NCBI RefSeq assembly: GCF_000012745.1
Contig: NC_007404.1
Location: forward strand, 992,001-1,056,000
DNA from: Thiobacillus denitrificans ATCC 25259
GTDB lineage: Bacteria; Pseudomonadota; Gammaproteobacteria; Burkholderiales; Thiobacillaceae
Direction: 5' to 3'
Length of the DNA stretch: 64,000 nt
Shown here piece by piece: positions 5,286-13,311 of the stretch. The first letter of the stretch is position 1; every line of letters begins with the position of its first letter. The notes beneath the pieces were generated by a model that did no database searches, was not told where the DNA came from, and saw only the letters and a list, made by a program, of their open reading frames with translations. Position numbers and translations under genes: made by a program.

Positions 5286-8020
5286 TGAACGCCCGCGTCC
5301 TGCACGCCGTCACCGGTCGTCTGTCTCTTCGTCCGCCCCAGGCGGAGTCGCTCACCAAACTGGTTCGCGCGCTTGATGCCGCGCCCGAACTATTGGGCCA
5401 CGAGCAGGATGTCTCGGCCATTTTGTCGACGCTGAAGGCTGAGTTCAGCACGCTGGAGGACTTCGAGCGCGAGTTCCCGTCGCTGTGCTTCGCGCTGGCC
5501 ACGGGCGTGGGCAAGACCCGCCTGATGGGAGCCTTCATCGCCTACCTGCATCTGGCGCACGGCATCAAGAACTTCTTCGTGCTCGCTCCCAACCTGACGA
5601 TCTACAACAAACTCATCACGGACTTCACGCGCAACACGCCAAAGTACGTGTTCAAGGGGATCGCCGAATTCGCGCAGCAACCGCCGCTGATCATCACCGG
5701 CGACAACTACGACCAGACCGGTGCGGCGGTAGACGAGCAGTCAATGGGCTTCGCTCACGACGTGCGTATCAACATCTTCAACATCTCCAAGATCAACTCC
5801 GAGGTGCGCGGCGGCAAGGAGCCGCGCATCAAGCGGATGAAGGAAGTGCTGGGCGACAGCTACTTCAACCACCTGGCTAGTCTTTCTGACCTGGTGCTGC
5901 TGATGGACGAGTCGCACCGCTACCGGGCCAGCGCCGGCGTGCGCGCCATCAACGAACTCAAGCCGCTATTCGGTCTGGAAGTGACGGCGACGCCGTTCGT
6001 CGAGTCCAGCCGTGGGCCAGTCCCGTTCAAGAACGTGGTGATGGACTACCCGCTGGCGCGCGCGATGGAGGATGGCTTCGTCAAGGAGCCTGCTGTGGTC
6101 ACCCAGCGCAACTTCGACGCCAAAGCGCACACGCCCGAGGAGATCGAGAAGACCAAGCTTGAAGACGGTGTGCGCCTGCACGAGACGACCAAGGTCGAGC
6201 TGCTCACCTATGCCCGCGAGAACGGCGTCAAGCCGGTCAAGCCCTTCATGCTCGTCATCGCTCGCGATACCACGCACGCGGGGCAACTCTTGGCACTTCT
6301 GGAGTCGGAAGCCTTCTACGAGGGGCGTTACCAGGGCAAGGTGATCCAGGTCGATTCCAGCCGTACCGGCGCGGAGGAAGAAGAGATGATCACGCGCCTG
6401 CTAGCCGTGGAGAGCGTGGACGAGCCGACCGAGATCGTGATTCACGTCAACATGCTCAAGGAGGGCTGGGACGTAACCAACCTCTATACCATCGTGCCGC
6501 TGCGCGCCGCCAATGCCCGCACGTTGATCGAACAGTCCATCGGGCGTGGCCTGCGATTGCCCTACGGCAAACGCACGGGCGTCGCGTCGGTGGATCGCTT
6601 GAACATCGTCGCGCACGACAAGTTCCAGGAGATCATCGACGAGGCCAACCGCGGCGACTCGCCGATTCGCCTGAAGCAGGTCATCCTCGATGCGCCGAGC
6701 GCCGACGACAAGAAGGTCAGCGTGCAGGTCGAGTCCGGGGCGGCGGCGCGTCTCGGTTTGACGGACGCACCGGTCGTGATCACAGGGGCTTCAGCCACTG
6801 ACAGTGGAGCGGAAGTCCCCGCGCCCAAGCCGGTGTTCACCACGGAGGCGGAGAAGCAGGCCGCGCGTGTGGTCATGGACGTCATCGGCAAGTACGAGGT
6901 CAAGCGCGATCTAGTGCCCACCAGCAGCGCGCTGCTGAAACCAGAAGTGCAGAAGGAAATCCTCGCGGAGGTGGCGGAGCGGTTGAAGCCGCTGCAAGGC
7001 GAATTGCTCGCGGGCGTGGATGAATCAGTCCCTGCACTTGACTTGTCAGCCGTGGTGGCGAAGACCACCGAGATCGTGGTGCAGCAGACCATCGACATCC
7101 CGCGCATCGCAGTGGTGCCGACTGGCGAGGTCACGACGGGCTTCCACGCCTTCAAGCTGGATGTGAGCCAGCTCCATCTCCAGCCGGGTGAGCGCGAGAT
7201 CGTCATCCATAACCTGCGCACCAACGAGCAGGATACCCTGGCCGCCGAAGTTGGGCTCAAGGAGCAGCGCCCGGAGGACTACATCGTCCACGCGCTGGTG
7301 GACTTCGACGACATCGACTACTTCACCCACGCCGATCTGCTCTACGACCTCGCGGGCCAGATGGTGCAACACCTGCGCGGCTACCTGTCCGAGGACGAAG
7401 CCATCAGCGTCCTCGATCGTGACCGCCGCCTGATCGCACGGGAAATCCACGCGCAGATGATGGCCCACTTCTGGGAAGAGGCGACCGACTACGAGGTGCA
7501 GGTCAGTCGCGGCTTCACCGAACTCAAGCCGTGCAACTACACCGCCACGGCAGGTCAGACGGCCCACCACTTCCGGGAGACCGTGACCGAGACCAGCCGC
7601 ATCAAGCAGATGCTGTTCGGCGGATTCGCGCGCTGCTTGTATCCGCTGCAGAAGTTCGATTCGGACACGGAGCGGCGCTTCGCCATCATTCTGGAGCGCG
7701 ATGCCCTGAAGTGGTTCAAGCCCGCGAAGGGGCAGTTCCAGATCTATTACAAGCTTGGCACCGAGCAGCCGGAGTACATCCCCGACTTCGTGGCCGAGAC
7801 GGACGCGACCGTCTTCATGGTTGAGACCAAGGCACGTGCCGAGGTCAACTCCCCGGAGGTTCAGGCCAAGACCGCTGCTGCAACGCGCTGGTGCAGCCAC
7901 GCTTCCGATTACGCCGCGAAGGTAGGCGCCAAACCGTGGAAGTACTTGCTGGTGCCCCACGACGAAATCAATGAGTCGAAGCGGCTCACGGATTACCTGC
8001 GCTTTGAGGGCATAACATGA
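5285..8020 (+). CDS. Type III restriction enzyme, Res subunit (helicase/endonuclease)
   Basis: The 911-residue protein is the ATP-dependent translocating and cutting subunit that partners Mod. It has a Q-type N-terminus, Walker A ATGVGKT at about residues 72-78 and a DEAH-type Walker B MDESHRY at about 206-212. The helicase core continues to the SIGRGLRLP motif VI near residue 420. The C-terminal endonuclease signature is present: PDF near residue 832 and ETK near 846, the PD-(D/E)XK pattern expected of Res. Length is normal for the family and no frameshift is visible, so the system looks intact. Its start overlaps the mod stop by one base, implying translational coupling. Nothing gene-like follows for about 1 kb. 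Confidence 0.93.
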   Translation: MNARVLHAVTGRLSLRPPQAESLTKLVRALDAAPELLGHEQDVSAILSTLKAEFSTLEDFEREFPSLCFALATGVGKTRLMGAFIAYLHLAHGIKNFFVLAPNLTIYNKLITDFTRNTPKYVFKGIAEFAQQPPLIITGDNYDQTGAAVDEQSMGFAHDVRINIFNISKINSEVRGGKEPRIKRMKEVLGDSYFNHLASLSDLVLLMDESHRYRASAGVRAINELKPLFGLEVTATPFVESSRGPVPFKNVVMDYPLARAMEDGFVKEPAVVTQRNFDAKAHTPEEIEKTKLEDGVRLHETTKVELLTYARENGVKPVKPFMLVIARDTTHAGQLLALLESEAFYEGRYQGKVIQVDSSRTGAEEEEMITRLLAVESVDEPTEIVIHVNMLKEGWDVTNLYTIVPLRAANARTLIEQSIGRGLRLPYGKRTGVASVDRLNIVAHDKFQEIIDEANRGDSPIRLKQVILDAPSADDKKVSVQVESGAAARLGLTDAPVVITGASATDSGAEVPAPKPVFTTEAEKQAARVVMDVIGKYEVKRDLVPTSSALLKPEVQKEILAEVAERLKPLQGELLAGVDESVPALDLSAVVAKTTEIVVQQTIDIPRIAVVPTGEVTTGFHAFKLDVSQLHLQPGEREIVIHNLRTNEQDTLAAEVGLKEQRPEDYIVHALVDFDDIDYFTHADLLYDLAGQMVQHLRGYLSEDEAISVLDRDRRLIAREIHAQMMAHFWEEATDYEVQVSRGFTELKPCNYTATAGQTAHHFRETVTETSRIKQMLFGGFARCLYPLQKFDSDTERRFAIILERDALKWFKPAKGQFQIYYKLGTEQPEYIPDFVAETDATVFMVETKARAEVNSPEVQAKTAAATRWCSHASDYAAKVGAKPWKYLLVPHDEINESKRLTDYLRFEGIT

Positions 8021-8353
8021 TTTGGCTGCCGTTGCCCGAACAATTGGGTTCCAATGCGCGAGTCGGATAGGCAAGTGCAGGCGAACGCTAACTCTGCTGA
8101 GATGGGGAAACATCCAGCCGATCCTCATCGGCGGCGACGTTGGGCTCACGAGATGGCGCACTCCGGCCCAGCGTGGCCCACATTGGGCCACTTCTACCCG
8201 CTGCTAGGGATTTCCGAGGTGGCTGGGCCGATACGGGCCAAACGGGGCCACTGACTTCATCGACCACCTCCGACTGCCTTAGACAACAAGGTCTTTCGCC
8301 GCGTCGCACCGGGTGATCCACTTAACGAACTCGAGGATATATATCTTGCCGGA

Positions 8354-8402
8354 GGGTGATCCTCGAAAAGACGCAAAAAATCGCCGTCTTTGCGAGTCAC
8401 CC
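8354..8402. repeat. Long imperfect inverted repeat (about 17 paired bases)
   Basis: GGGTGA, CTCG and AAAGACG on the left pair in order with CGTCTTT, CGAG and TCACCC on the right. A two-base bulge and one mismatch interrupt the stem, and the loop is A-rich (caaaaaatcgc). It is the first of a row of hairpins upstream of the recombinase gene. It could be a terminator for the res operon, but no T-run follows on the plus strand. Confidence 0.7.
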
Positions 8403-8424
8403 GAGGTCCCCAACGGCTCTAGAA

Positions 8425-8456
8425 TGAGCGCAACCTGACTGAAGTCAGTACGCTCA
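8425..8456. repeat. Two-tier inverted repeat
   Basis: The outer arms TGAGCG (8425-8430) and CGCTCA (8451-8456) enclose inner arms CTGACT and AGTCAG with a two-base loop. The inner bulges are CAAC on the left and TA on the right. The two-tier layout resembles a folded RNA or a cruciform binding site. Confidence 0.65.
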
Positions 8457-8470
8457 AAAAGCGAAACAAG

Positions 8471-8500
8471 CCGATATTTTAATAGATATCAAAATATCGG
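8471..8500. repeat. Perfect 10-bp inverted repeat, AT-rich
   Basis: CCGATATTTT at 8471-8480 is the exact reverse complement of AAAATATCGG at 8491-8500, with a ten-base spacer that itself holds the palindrome GATATC. The spacing is one helical turn between arms. That suits a dimeric DNA-binding protein or a recombinase core site as well as a hairpin. Confidence 0.75.
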
Positions 8501-8544
8501 AGTAGCAACACATCGCCGGCAACCGCGATTCCGAGCTAGGGGCC

Positions 8545-8583
8545 GCCCGTCTCTGTGCGACGATAAGGAGCACAGAGACGGGC
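8545..8583. repeat. Perfect 14-bp inverted repeat
   Basis: GCCCGTCTCTGTGC (8545-8558) and GCACAGAGACGGGC (8570-8583) are exact reverse complements separated by 11 bases. This is the longest perfect palindrome in the island part of the window. No T-run follows on either strand, which argues against a simple terminator. Confidence 0.8.
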
Positions 8584-8643
8584 TAGCGCTCTGCCGCGTA
8601 AGCCCAGTCTGCCGCGGCTCCAACGTGTTTCTTGCCACGACGA

Positions 8644-8663
8644 AAAACGACGAACGTCGTTTT
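8644..8663. repeat. Perfect 8-bp inverted repeat
   Basis: AAAACGAC and GTCGTTTT flank the four-base loop GAAC. With A-tracts on the left and T-tracts on the right, it could terminate transcription on either strand weakly. It is one member of the hairpin row at 8354-8773. Confidence 0.6.
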
Positions 8664-9039
8664 CCTCATAACAAATAACCATCGAGCAAGCACCGCTTGC
8701 AAGACAGTCAATAGGGCCGGGATGGGATTACCCGGAGGCCGAGTAACGGCCGAGGCCGGAGCGCGCAAGCGCGTGAGGATCCGATACTCCATAGCTCCCT
8801 CAGATCAAGAACTCACCCCCATAAAGTTGAGGATGCCACCTCCAAAAAAACACACGAAGGGCAAGCTTGCGAGAGCTTTAAATCTCTGCGTAACACTTAA
8901 CACGAAGTTAATCGGGCCCTCCGGGAATGGGAACATTTTTGCTGCGGTTTTACGTGGGCACTTCTACCCGCGCCGCAGCCCAACCCGAGCTACTTTCTGT
9001 CAGATCAGACAATCGTTCGGATTTTTTTTCATATAGGAC

Positions 9040-9963
9040 ATGGCCAATAATTTTGGATTGGGTTCAAGGGATATGGGAAAGGCAGGAGTGTTTGCCTGCA
9101 ATTCGGCCGCACGTTCCGGTGCCATTTCATACGGCACAGCGGCGTCGGTCGGGGAGCGTTGGCAGAAATTTACTGAGTTCGCCCGCGGTCAAGGTGTGAA
9201 AAAGCTCGAAGATGTGAGCAGGGAGTTGGTCATGGCCTACGGCAAGGAGCTCGCCGAGTCTGATTTATCCGAGTCCTATGGCCAAAACCTGGTCTCTGCA
9301 GTGAATTCGGTCATGTCCCTTGCTACAAAAGGCGCTTGGCGCGCCGTCAGTCCGACCAGAGAGTGCGGAATCGAGAAGCGGTCCGCGATCAGGGGGGCTG
9401 CGCCCGATGGGCTTGATAGGGAGCAATTTCGTCTTGTGCTACAGGAAATGCAGCGCGACGGACTTGGGCGCCAGGCAGCTATCGCCGACCTGGCAAGAAA
9501 TCTTGGCCTTCGATCAAAGGAAGCCTCTCTGCTCAATGCAAATCAGGCGCTTCGACAAGCGGAATCGACCGGAATGGTGCGGTTCATTGCCGGGACGAAG
9601 GGCGGCAGGCCACGCGTGCTGGCAATTTCGCCCGTAGGCTTGCAGTCACTCAGGTGTGCCGCAGCATTGCAGGGTAATAACCGAAACTTAGTACCCACCG
9701 GTCAAAGCTGGAAGCAGTGGCGAGAAGGTGGTTTGAGGGCCGGTCGTGACGCTCTCAAAGCCAGAGGAATTAGAGGATTGCATGAACTGAGGTCCGCCTA
9801 TGCTTGCGAGCGCTATAGCCAGATCGCAGGCTGCCCTGCCCCGGTTATTTCCGGCAAGGTGCGAGACCGCCGGGTTGACCGATTGGCGCGCGAGACCATA
9901 GCGAGGGAACTTGGGCACGGCCGGATAGATGTCGTAGCGGAGTACGTCGGGGGACGCAGGTGA
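9040..9963 (+). CDS. Tyrosine recombinase of the 'integrase domain-containing protein' type
   Basis: The 307-residue protein has an N-terminal helical core-binding part (about 1-120) and a C-terminal catalytic domain. The active-site set is complete by eye: Arg in LGLRSKEAS, the beta-hairpin Lys in TKGGRPR, H-x-x-R in LHELRSAY, His in ELGHGRID, and the nucleophile Tyr in AEYVGG near the C-terminus. The sequence resembles the short island/ICE-associated recombinases of the Pfam Integrase_1 type, not the P4 integrase at the island end. Its last bases overlap the next gene (GTGA). The hairpin-rich DNA just upstream may contain its sites. Family call is good; substrate site is unknown. Confidence 0.8.
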   Translation: MANNFGLGSRDMGKAGVFACNSAARSGAISYGTAASVGERWQKFTEFARGQGVKKLEDVSRELVMAYGKELAESDLSESYGQNLVSAVNSVMSLATKGAWRAVSPTRECGIEKRSAIRGAAPDGLDREQFRLVLQEMQRDGLGRQAAIADLARNLGLRSKEASLLNANQALRQAESTGMVRFIAGTKGGRPRVLAISPVGLQSLRCAAALQGNNRNLVPTGQSWKQWREGGLRAGRDALKARGIRGLHELRSAYACERYSQIAGCPAPVISGKVRDRRVDRLARETIARELGHGRIDVVAEYVGGRR

Positions 9964-10277
9964 GGCTTAGGGATGATCTGCAAGACGCCTTGCGCCGCCA
10001 CACCAGGAAAGGAGGGAAAACCTCTCGGCGTCGCCAGGTAGACAGAATTTATCAATTCCTCGGGTTCTGTTCCGCAAAGGGAATCCGCGCCCCCGAGCAA
10101 ATCGGGAAGAGGCACGTCCATGAGTGGTTTGAAGAGTCCCATTTTTCCGCGTCAACTTTGCGTGACAAATTTTATGCAGTGTCCTTGCTATGGGAAATCA
10201 TGGGGCGGGGACAACCACCGAACCCGGAAAACACCTTGGCTAAAACTAATCCCCCGCGACCCGACCCGCAGTCGTAG
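9960..10277 (+). CDS. Small protein resembling a recombinase core-binding (SAM-like) domain only
   Basis: The 105-residue protein starts at GTG 9960, overlapping the stop of the recombinase gene by four bases, so the two are probably translated together. The body (residues about 20-90) has the helix pattern of phage-integrase N-terminal core-binding domains: basic and aromatic positions in RRRQVDRIYQFLGFC, QIGKRHVHEW, and STLRDKFYAVSLLWE. There is no catalytic domain and the proline-rich tail ends the protein. It could be an accessory DNA-binding partner of the recombinase, or the remnant of a second integrase. I see no independent ribosome site. Confidence 0.6.
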   Translation: MRLRDDLQDALRRHTRKGGKTSRRRQVDRIYQFLGFCSAKGIRAPEQIGKRHVHEWFEESHFSASTLRDKFYAVSLLWEIMGRGQPPNPENTLAKTNPPRPDPQS

Positions 10278-11570: not shown

Positions 11571-12773
11571 TTATCCATAAAGCCGAATAACCGTTGCTCC
11601 AGCTTTTAGTTCATCTAAGTAGTCTGCCCAGCCCTGCATCATTTTTCGGCGCTCCGGAAGGTGGGTGGTGCGGTTATAGGCTCGCCCTAGCGGATCGCGG
11701 ACGGCGTGCGCTAACTGATGCTCGATGATGTCTGGGCGGAACCCTAGAACCTCATCAAGAAGGGTCCGCGCCATGGCGCGGAAGCCGTGCCCTGTTAGTG
11801 TTTCCTTATCGTAGCCAAGCGACCTCAGCGCAGCGTTGACAGTGTTCTCGCTCATGGGGCGGCCTTCCCCCCGGTTCGCCGGAAAAACATAGCGCTTGTG
11901 CCCTGTTAAGGGCTGCAGTTCTTCCAAGACCGAAATGGCTTGACGGCTCAAAGGGACTATGTGCTCGGTATTGGTCTTGGATACCGTATAGCGCCATTCG
12001 GCAGCCCCGAGGTCGAAGTGTGCCCATTCGGCATGTCTTAATTCGCCTGGACGAACAAAAATTAAGGGTGCCAAACGAAGTGCGCTTCGCACGACGGGGC
12101 CACCGCTGTAGCCATCTATATTGCGCAGCAGCACTCCAATTTGGACGGGGTCGGTGATGCTTTTGAAGTGGCTCTTGGCAACAGGCGGGAGGGCGCCTTT
12201 CAGGTCTTGCGAAGGGTCTCGTTCCGCGCGGCCGGTCGCTACTGAGTAGCGAAAAACTTGGCCGCAGTTCTGCATGGCGCGATGGGCGGTTTCGACCGCT
12301 CCGCGCTCCTCGATACGCCGTAGGGCTGCGAGAAGGGTTGGGGGTGTAATGTCGGCGATCGGCTTATCGCCTAACCACGGAAAAATGTCATTTTCCAAGC
12401 GCCTGATGATGCGGTCGCTATGGTTTGCGCTCCATGTCGAAGAAAACTTCGCATGCCATTCGCGAGCGACGGCTTCAAAACTGTTGCTCGCGCGGTCCTG
12501 CCGAGCCTGCTTTGTAGCCTTTCTATTTTCGGCCGGGTCTACGCCGTGGGCGAGCAGCTTTTTGGCTTCATCACGCCGCTGCCGGGCGTCTGCAAGAGAG
12601 ACCGCCGGGTAGGTTCCAAGCGACAGCAGCTTCTGCTTTCCCGTGTAACGATAAGCTAGGCGCCACCACTTTCCACCCGACGGGGATATATGAAGAAACA
12701 GGCCCTGAGAATCGGAGAGTTTCTGGACGTTGGGACCAGGTTTCGCCTGGCGCACTTTCATGTCGGTAAGCAC
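11571..12773 (-). CDS. P4-type tyrosine integrase (DUF4102 arm-binding domain)
   Basis: The 400-residue protein has an N-terminal arm-type DNA-binding domain (residues about 1-95) and a C-terminal tyrosine recombinase domain. The start GTG gives MLTDMKVRQAKPG, the usual beginning for this family; an internal ATG four codons later is the alternative. Catalytic residues are visible: Arg in VRPGELRHAEW, Lys in SKTNTEH, H-x-x-R in GHGFRAMAR, and the nucleophile Tyr in GRAYNRT after the H in HQLAHAV. The gene lies next to the 3' end of ssrA, reading away from it, which is the standard layout for islands that integrate into tmRNA genes. It marks the right end of the island. The gene appears intact. 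Confidence 0.93.
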   Translation of the reverse strand: MLTDMKVRQAKPGPNVQKLSDSQGLFLHISPSGGKWWRLAYRYTGKQKLLSLGTYPAVSLADARQRRDEAKKLLAHGVDPAENRKATKQARQDRASNSFEAVAREWHAKFSSTWSANHSDRIIRRLENDIFPWLGDKPIADITPPTLLAALRRIEERGAVETAHRAMQNCGQVFRYSVATGRAERDPSQDLKGALPPVAKSHFKSITDPVQIGVLLRNIDGYSGGPVVRSALRLAPLIFVRPGELRHAEWAHFDLGAAEWRYTVSKTNTEHIVPLSRQAISVLEELQPLTGHKRYVFPANRGEGRPMSENTVNAALRSLGYDKETLTGHGFRAMARTLLDEVLGFRPDIIEHQLAHAVRDPLGRAYNRTTHLPERRKMMQGWADYLDELKAGATVIRLYG

Positions 12774-12944: not shown

Positions 12945-13311
12945 TGGTGGAGCCGGCGGGAATCGAACCCGCGTCCGCAAGCCCTCTACAGGCAGTTCTA
13001 CATACTTAGTCCGGTGTTTTTAAGCTTTAAGCTCCATCACGCCCGCCGAACAGGCTGGATTTCGCCGAGCCGCCTTGGATTTAGCACCTGCCCAAGCGAC
13101 CCGGACAAGCGCGATTTCATGTGAATTAACTCACTGCCGGTTTGACCCGGCCTAGCCCATGAACAGGCTAGTGTGAGTCCTGGACCTTAAGCGGCCAGGG
13201 CGTAGTTTTCGTCGTTTGCGACTAAAGTTTTTCAGTTGGATTTACGAGGTGCTCTGACCCTCGGTATGCCCTACGCTGCTTTGCGACCCACGTCGAAGCC
13301 AGGTCGGCCCC
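12945..13311 (-). ncRNA. ssrA: Transfer-messenger RNA (tmRNA)
   Basis: tmRNA rescues stalled ribosomes and tags the nascent peptide for degradation. The 5' end starts GGGGCCGACCTGGCTTCGAC and the 3' end has the T-arm GGTTCGATTCCCGCC followed by GGCTCCACCA with an encoded CCA; the acceptor arms GGGGCCG and CGGCTCC pair. The tag frame is at 13187-13219 and reads ANDENYALAA followed by TAA, a typical betaproteobacterial tag. Total length is 367 bases, normal for a one-piece tmRNA. The 3' end adjoins the island integrase. The gene remains complete, as expected when an element restores the end of its target on integration. Confidence 0.96.

What the first reader, a model, noticed from the sequence alone, without database searches (positions are those of the whole stretch)
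8354..8773. Row of at least nine hairpins in a gene-free stretch next to a recombinase
Within 420 bases there are inverted repeats with arms of 17 (imperfect), 12 (two-tier), 10, 14, 8, 6, 5, 5 and 5 bases, several perfect. Such density is far above background and no frame across it looks coding. The site lies between the restriction operon and a tyrosine recombinase. It could be a structured RNA, a replication or transfer origin, or an array of folded recombination sites, as in integron attC elements, though the sequences differ from attC.
Basis: partly seen in the sequence, partly recalled or inferred. Interest (0 to 1): 0.7.

Follow-up and report, generated by a model that had tools for sequence, protein, structure and literature searches.

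The report
Hairpin site beside a plasmid recombinase
The hairpins belong to a conserved, structured non-coding element that travels with a two-gene DNA-recombinase module on plasmids across the Pseudomonadota, probably as the control or recombination site of that enzyme, and the copy here sits in a plasmid-like element that has inserted into the chromosome.

Summary
The hairpin cluster is real and far above background. It is part of something larger: a gene-free region (8021-9039) upstream of an active-looking tyrosine recombinase (PF12835, 9040-9963) and an overlapping 105-residue partner ORF. Plasmids of other Pseudomonadota carry the same layout although the non-coding DNA no longer aligns by blastn. 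Three parts recur in order: hairpin A (CCGTCTCTGT..ACAGAGACGG, window 8545-8583), a tandem CGWGAAAA repeat B (8637-8656), and bulged hairpin C (8868-8890) followed directly by core ACACTYAMC (8893-8901). Paired positions covary in A (0/500 shuffles) and C (0/5000). A covariance model found strong hits only next to this recombinase subfamily; no Rfam family matches. Best reading: a cis-acting DNA site (recombination, possibly multimer resolution, and/or regulation) of a plasmid recombinase module, brought in by a 19.75-kb TrfA-bearing element inserted at the tmRNA gene. A + strand structured RNA remains a serious rival. It is not an integron attC site. I found no published description of this element.

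The parts
8021..9039 (+). gene-free 5' region of the recombinase module
   Evidence: same layout (about 0.8-1.7 kb gene-free, then integrase, then small ORF) in plasmid relatives; in close relative pairs it is conserved about as well as the integrase gene
8545..8583 (+). hairpin A: GCCCGTCTCTGTGC - 11-nt loop - GCACAGAGACGGGC
   Evidence: same hairpin with covarying inner pairs and variable loop upstream of the relatives; covariation 0/500 shuffles
8637..8656 (+). tandem repeat B: ACGACGAAAAACGACGAACG (consensus CGWGAAAAnCGWGAAAA)
   Evidence: 43-57 nt after the right arm of A in 22 of 24 loci, 65 and 88 in the other two; aligned
8868..8890 (+). hairpin C: TGC-GAGA-gctttaaa-TCTC-T(bulge)-GCG
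   Evidence: same architecture with different stem sequences in 12 loci; 91 of 94 cells pair, 0 of 5000 shuffles reach that; single-locus p 0.04 in the window
8893..8901 (+). core motif ACACTTAAC (consensus ACACTYAMC), candidate recombinase core
   Evidence: recognisable a short distance after hairpin C in all 26 loci examined by eye
9040..9963 (+). tyrosine recombinase, Integrase_1 (PF12835); catalytic R158, K187, H248, R251, H293, Y302 kept
   Evidence: Pfam hit 9.4e-13; invariant columns in the 13-sequence alignment A1
9960..10277 (+). partner ORF, 105 aa, overlaps the recombinase stop; weakly like a recombinase core-binding domain
   Evidence: conserved small ORF at this place in 17 aligned loci; weak Phage_int_SAM_6 hit to a homologue, E 0.089
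8362..8396 (.). hairpin with 12-nt arms; no counterpart found in relatives
   Evidence: not among motifs shared by the relatives
8471..8500 (.). A/T-rich hairpin with 14-nt arms; no counterpart found in relatives
   Evidence: terminator-like on the minus strand
8644..8663 (.). perfect 9-bp hairpin overlapping repeat B
11571..12773 (-). separate integrase (Arm-DNA-bind_3 / Phage_integrase) beside the tmRNA gene, candidate integrase of the island
   Evidence: tmRNA at 12945-13311; 24-nt copy of the tmRNA 3' end with 2 mismatches at G000:C1:985196

Best explanation
The region is the cis-acting DNA site of a self-contained plasmid recombinase module (non-coding element + Integrase_1 recombinase + small partner protein). 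Proposed working: the recombinase, helped by the partner, acts at the core ACACTYAMC, which is marked on its 5' side by bulged hairpin C; hairpin A (above all its right arm ACAGAGACGG) and tandem repeat B are accessory sites or structures that build a regulated complex. The most likely job is plasmid upkeep, such as resolving plasmid multimers or fusions, and/or control of the recombinase gene. Shown: conservation, covariation, fixed order and orientation, linkage to the recombinase, presence on small plasmids with unrelated replication genes, and an active site that looks intact. Inferred: binding, strand exchange at the core, multimer resolution, and that the hairpins act as DNA. The window copy was carried in by an integrated TrfA-bearing element.
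For: Parts A, B and C recur in one order and orientation upstream of the recombinase in relatives whose non-coding DNA does not align (blastn of the window region against plasmids: no match). The right arm of A is the most shared 9-mer (17 of 19 loci within one mismatch; shuffles reach 11). Model R1 (A to B) over 398 genomes: all six full-length hits with E <= 4.3e-8 lie beside this recombinase, one of them beside a copy truncated after about 30 codons; 25 loci of more distant Integrase_1 proteins have no hit below E 0.8. Covariation in A and C. The variable upper stem of C has no G-T pair in 57 cells and hairpin A has 4 G-T in 235 pairs, fewer than I would expect of RNA helices. Spacing from A's right arm to B steps by about one helical turn (43-44, 54-57, 65; 88 once). 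The non-coding 520 bp is as conserved as, or more than, the integrase in 4 of 5 close pairs. The module makes up most of plasmid-like contigs of about 3.4 kb (RepL) and 4.5 kb.
Against: No crossover was seen exactly at the core. The right half of the core is poorly conserved. The left arm of A is missing in L002, L004, L006, L007 and L039. Some Aeromonas carriers also have a dif-like site, so a resolution role would be redundant there. Part of the evidence favours a + strand molecule. A 1-kb site is long for a resolution site. The scarcity of G-T pairs could also reflect template-switch correction of palindromes.
Confidence: 0.48

Rival explanations
1. A structured RNA transcribed on the + strand upstream of the recombinase gene, acting as a leader that controls its expression or as a separate non-coding RNA; hairpins A and C are RNA helices and B and the core are single-stranded recognition motifs.
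For: Folding z-scores are lower on the + strand in most of 17 loci (mean -4.4 against -2.9). The outer pair of C is T-G in six loci and C-A in two. Loop lengths and the B-to-C distance vary freely. Terminator-like hairpins with T runs lie between core and integrase in L040, L041, L042 and L073 (read by eye).
Against: Hardly any G-T pairs inside strongly covarying stems. No sigma-70-like promoter in 8000-9100. No Rfam match. The left arm of A is lost in five loci.
Confidence: 0.33
2. Replication- or transfer-related origin (single-strand initiation site, oriT) that happens to be carried with the recombinase.
For: A hairpin with a bulge followed at once by a conserved single-stranded motif resembles nick sites (inference); hosts are plasmids.
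Against: Constant linkage to the recombinase and partner; carriers have different replication genes; most plasmids are typed non-mobilizable and the mobilizable Halomonas ones encode their relaxase elsewhere.
Confidence: 0.1
3. Integron-like system: the core is an attI-like site and the large imperfect inverted repeats that begin at the core in about ten loci are attC-like.
For: Imperfect inverted repeats with unpaired spacers begin at the core, for example in L005, L040, L042, L060 and L063 (read by eye). In L050 a 1.7-kb YfjI-hypothetical pair lies between core and integrase and is absent from L061.
Against: No integron-integrase family hit; no array of repeated sites; the L050 insert overlaps the integrase start instead of ending in a site; the window has no such repeat.
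Confidence: 0.06

Closest known systems
Tyrosine-recombinase resolution systems with core plus accessory sites (Tn4430 TnpI-IRS, Tn4651 TnpS/TnpT-rst, XerCD at cer/psi)
   Same: tyrosine recombinase with intact catalytic residues, site in cis next to the gene, candidate core plus direct repeats, found on plasmids
   Different: site about 0.4-1 kb long with covarying hairpins; recombinase of the Integrase_1 family with its own small partner; no dif-like sequence at the window core (best 16 of 28)
Integron IntI / attI / attC
   Same: tyrosine recombinase beside non-coding DNA that can fold; imperfect inverted repeats at the core in some relatives
   Different: no integron-integrase family hit, no cassette array, no attC boxes; the conserved hairpins differ in sequence and build
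IS110-family recombinase with bridge RNA
   Same: recombinase gene next to a structured non-coding stretch of a few hundred bases
   Different: unrelated enzyme class; no element ends matched to RNA loops were looked for or found, and transcription is unknown
Large structured RNAs of phages and plasmids (GOLLD, ROOL, int-alpA and similar Rfam families)
   Same: several hairpins in a mobile element, near an integrase in some cases
   Different: no match of the element at gathering thresholds in the window or 16 relative loci

Membership tests
Tyrosine recombinase, Integrase_1 (PF12835) | Pfam match above the curated cut-off | tested here: met
   48.8 bits against cut-off 23
Tyrosine recombinase, Integrase_1 (PF12835) | catalytic R, K, H-x-x-R, H and Y present | tested here: met
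   R158, K187, H248, R251, H293, Y302 invariant in alignment A1
Integron (IntI/attI/attC) | integrase matches the integron-integrase family | tested here: not met
   NCBIfam gives only weak XerD/PRK00283 hits, none for integron integrase
Integron (IntI/attI/attC) | array of attC sites with RYYYAAC/GTTRRRY boxes | tested here: not met
   window hairpins lack the boxes; the core is not arrayed in the plasmids scanned
Xer/dif resolution | dif-like 28-bp XerCD site at the element | tested here: not met
   best match in the window core 16 of 28; dif-like sites (21-23 of 28) lie elsewhere on some Aeromonas carriers
Plasmid multimer-resolution system | converts multimers to monomers by recombination at the site | not testable with these tools
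   needs a bench assay
Plasmid multimer-resolution system | one site per replicon, in cis with its recombinase | tested here: met
   one core next to the recombinase in the complete Halomonas plasmids and pAeme4; a second match, without hairpin C, in pOCEGK01
Known Rfam RNA family | covariance-model score at or above gathering threshold | tested here: not met
Transfer origin (oriT) | relaxase nick site with a cognate relaxase | not tested
   no relaxase next to the module in the window; no nick-site search was run

The most novel reading that the evidence does not exclude
A tyrosine recombinase that works with its own folded nucleic-acid partner, either an RNA made from this region or a single-stranded DNA fold, so that target choice or regulation depends on structure: a parallel, in a different enzyme class, to bridge-RNA recombinases or to integron attC sites.
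Probability: 0.12. Interest if true: 0.9.

Novelty: new variant of a known kind. Interest (0 to 1): 0.55.

Why it matters
It defines a module (structured non-coding element, Integrase_1 recombinase, small partner) that occurs on many plasmids, some of them tiny or carrying resistance genes, and that databases list only as 'integrase domain-containing protein' plus 'hypothetical protein'. If the element is the enzyme's site, it gives a handle on how these plasmids are maintained or fused. If it is an RNA or a folded single-stranded DNA, it would be an unusual nucleic-acid partner for a tyrosine recombinase. The covariation makes direct tests possible: compensatory mutations in hairpins A and C.

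Tried and rejected
(1) Nucleotide search for the region in plasmids and in 100 related genomes: only the window itself. (2) Rfam at gathering and relaxed thresholds: nothing for the element. (3) Exact hairpin-A pattern in viral contigs: none; in 369 genomes of the class: five genomes, of which only the window's own and G598 have recombinase motifs nearby, the other three looking like chance. (4) Regular-expression patterns for A plus B: too strict, replaced by a covariance model. (5) Strict inverted binding sites around a fixed crossover spacer at hairpin A: rejected, the distance between the conserved cores varies from about 7 to 23 nt. (6) Module exchange through the core: in Aeromonas and Halomonas the breakpoints lie elsewhere, after the partner gene or near +1650, so not supported. 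(7) XerCD/dif as the window site: rejected. (8) Strand choice from RNAalifold on close pairs gave no clear answer. (9) Literature searches found no description of this element; the library is open-access only.

Full report
WHAT WAS CHECKED. The strong ones are real: 8362-8396, 8471-8500, 8545-8583 (14 bp, perfect) and 8644-8663. The stretch holds four stems of score at least 9 in 420 nt, against 0.56 per kb in the whole window, and 8320-8800 folds far below shuffled sequence on both strands (z -6.3 and -7.3). Arms of five or six bases carry no weight on their own.

SETTING. The gene-free stretch runs from 8021 to 9039. It is followed by a 307-aa tyrosine recombinase (Integrase_1, PF12835, 9.4e-13) whose catalytic residues R158, K187, H248, R251, H293 and Y302 are invariant in an alignment of relatives, and by an overlapping 105-aa ORF. 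The whole lies in an island. A second integrase (11571-12773) sits beside the tmRNA gene (12945-13311), and a copy of the tmRNA 3' end with two mismatches lies at C1:985196, 19.75 kb away. Just inside that end is a TrfA plasmid replication protein (1.5e-21). The island is therefore best read as an integrated plasmid-like element; besides the module it carries restriction and defence genes.

RELATIVES. The non-coding DNA has no blastn match in plasmids or in 100 related genomes. The recombinase does: 35 plasmid records match over at least 80% of its length. Plasmids of Halomonas, Oceanimonas, Pseudomonas, Paenalcaligenes, Acidithiobacillus, Aeromonas and others share the layout of a gene-free stretch, the recombinase, and a small overlapping or adjacent ORF. 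That small ORF was found at this place in nearly all loci examined and is weakly like a recombinase core-binding domain (E 0.089).

THE ELEMENT. Three parts recur in the same order and orientation. Hairpin A: CCGTCTCTGT-loop-ACAGAGACGG. Its inner base pairs differ between loci but stay complementary (GTGC/GCAC, TTTT/AAAA, TTGCC/GGCAA, AAAT/ATTT); formal counts give 92.7% paired against 78.1% in shuffles, 0 of 500 reaching it, and sliding the partner destroys it. The right arm is the most shared 9-mer of the upstream regions (17 of 19 loci within one mismatch; 11 at most in shuffles); the left arm is missing in five loci. Repeat B: a tandem CGWGAAAA motif that starts 43-44, 54-57, 65 or 88 nt after the right arm, steps close to whole turns of DNA. 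Hairpin C: TGC, 4-5 variable base pairs, loop of 5-8, one bulged base, GCR, followed directly by the core ACACTYAMC. Twelve loci keep this build with different stem sequences: 91 of 94 cells pair, shuffled mean 65.1, none of 5000 reaching it. A separate search for the best such hairpin upstream of each of 23 cores gave Fisher chi-squared 101.7 on 46 degrees of freedom; some loci (L005, L039, L046) do not fit the build.

LINKAGE. A covariance model of A to B, run over the same 398 genomes that had been searched with the recombinase profile, gave full-length hits at E 4.3e-8 or better only beside this recombinase: the window, G1066, G924 (twice) and G930 (twice). Several of these loci also helped to build the model, so they match it by construction; the second G930 copy did not. 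That copy sits beside a recombinase cut off after about 30 codons, in an island with a type I restriction system. Twenty-five loci of more distant Integrase_1 proteins had no hit below E 0.8. An exact-pattern search independent of the protein also led to a recombinase-like frame in G598.

CONSTRAINT AND CARRIERS. In close relative pairs the unit conserved is about 2.2 kb, from roughly 1 kb upstream of the recombinase to the end of the partner gene, with unrelated flanks. Its proximal 520 non-coding bases are as conserved as, or more conserved than, the recombinase gene in four of five pairs. The module makes up most of a RepL plasmid-like contig of about 3.4 kb and of a 4.5-kb tandemly assembled contig. 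Carriers use different replication genes (TrfA, RepL, ColE1-like with RNAI, others), so it is unlikely to be the replication origin.

DNA OR RNA. For DNA: hardly any G-T pairs in stems that vary a great deal (4 of 235 pairs in A, none in 57 cells of the upper stem of C), the near-helical A-to-B steps, no sigma-70-like promoter, and the tie to a recombinase. For RNA (or a folded + strand): lower z-scores on the + strand in most of 17 loci (mean -4.4 against -2.9), T-G rather than C-A at the outer pair of C (6 against 2), variable loops and B-to-C distances, and terminator-like hairpins between core and gene in some relatives (read by eye). The perfect pairing could also come from template-switch correction of palindromes. 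I put a DNA site at 0.48 and an RNA at 0.33.

MECHANISM. Shown: conservation, covariation, order, linkage, intact catalytic residues. Inferred: that the recombinase and partner bind here, that strand exchange occurs at the core, and that the outcome is plasmid multimer or fusion resolution. Against this, some Aeromonas carriers also hold a dif-like site, and no crossover at the core was seen.

NOT AN INTEGRON. No integron-integrase family hit, no cassette array, no attC boxes. Some relatives do have large imperfect inverted repeats starting at the core (L005, L040-L042, L060, L063, L073; read by eye), and one has a gene pair lodged between core and recombinase (L050 against L061). These stay unexplained.

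CAVEATS. Motifs B and the core, and several hairpins, were first picked by eye and then tested; the covariation counts rest on hand-made or MAFFT alignments of 12-18 loci without a tree. Relatives came from plasmid records and sampled genomes. The literature library holds open-access papers only, so a description in a subscription journal could have been missed.

Noticed in passing
window 8189-8201 and 8959-8971: A 13-bp direct repeat (CACTTCTACCCGC) lies on both sides of the conserved element; the first copy is among TGGCCC-type repeats that might be the end of an old insertion sequence.
   Followed up: no
G000:C1:985196-1004946 (window -6805 to 12945): 19.75-kb island at the tmRNA gene with TrfA, AIPR, an HSP90-like ATPase, a methylase, a ResIII helicase and SNF2 helicase genes: an integrated plasmid-like element loaded with restriction and defence genes.
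   Followed up: partly
L050 2227-3970 against L061: A YfjI-type gene and a hypothetical gene sit exactly between core and recombinase in one Pseudomonas plasmid and are absent from its relative; the non-coding part is 84% identical but the recombinase genes only 66%.
   Followed up: partly
L034 and L036 (Halomonas plasmids): A toxin-antitoxin pair lies upstream of the module in one plasmid and downstream in the other; an inverted repeat CTCTACTT..AAGTAGAG lies at the right-hand junction.
   Followed up: partly
L048 357, L104 5022, L105 374, L106 4540: Dif-like XerCD sites (21-23 of 28 matches) about 1.35-1.46 kb upstream of the recombinase in Aeromonas plasmids.
   Followed up: no
L078 and L095, about 880 bp upstream of the recombinase: The left end of the homologous block is a perfect 16-17 bp palindrome whose arms differ between the two copies by fully compensatory changes.
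   Followed up: no
L105, L106 and other Aeromonas plasmids, about +1650 from the recombinase start: Many plasmid pairs lose similarity at the same place, after CCTCGCCAAGATCCTCT: a recurrent breakpoint downstream of a small RepB gene.
   Followed up: no
L061 3030-3162: radC RNA (RF01754) just upstream of the module in the G930 genome.
   Followed up: no
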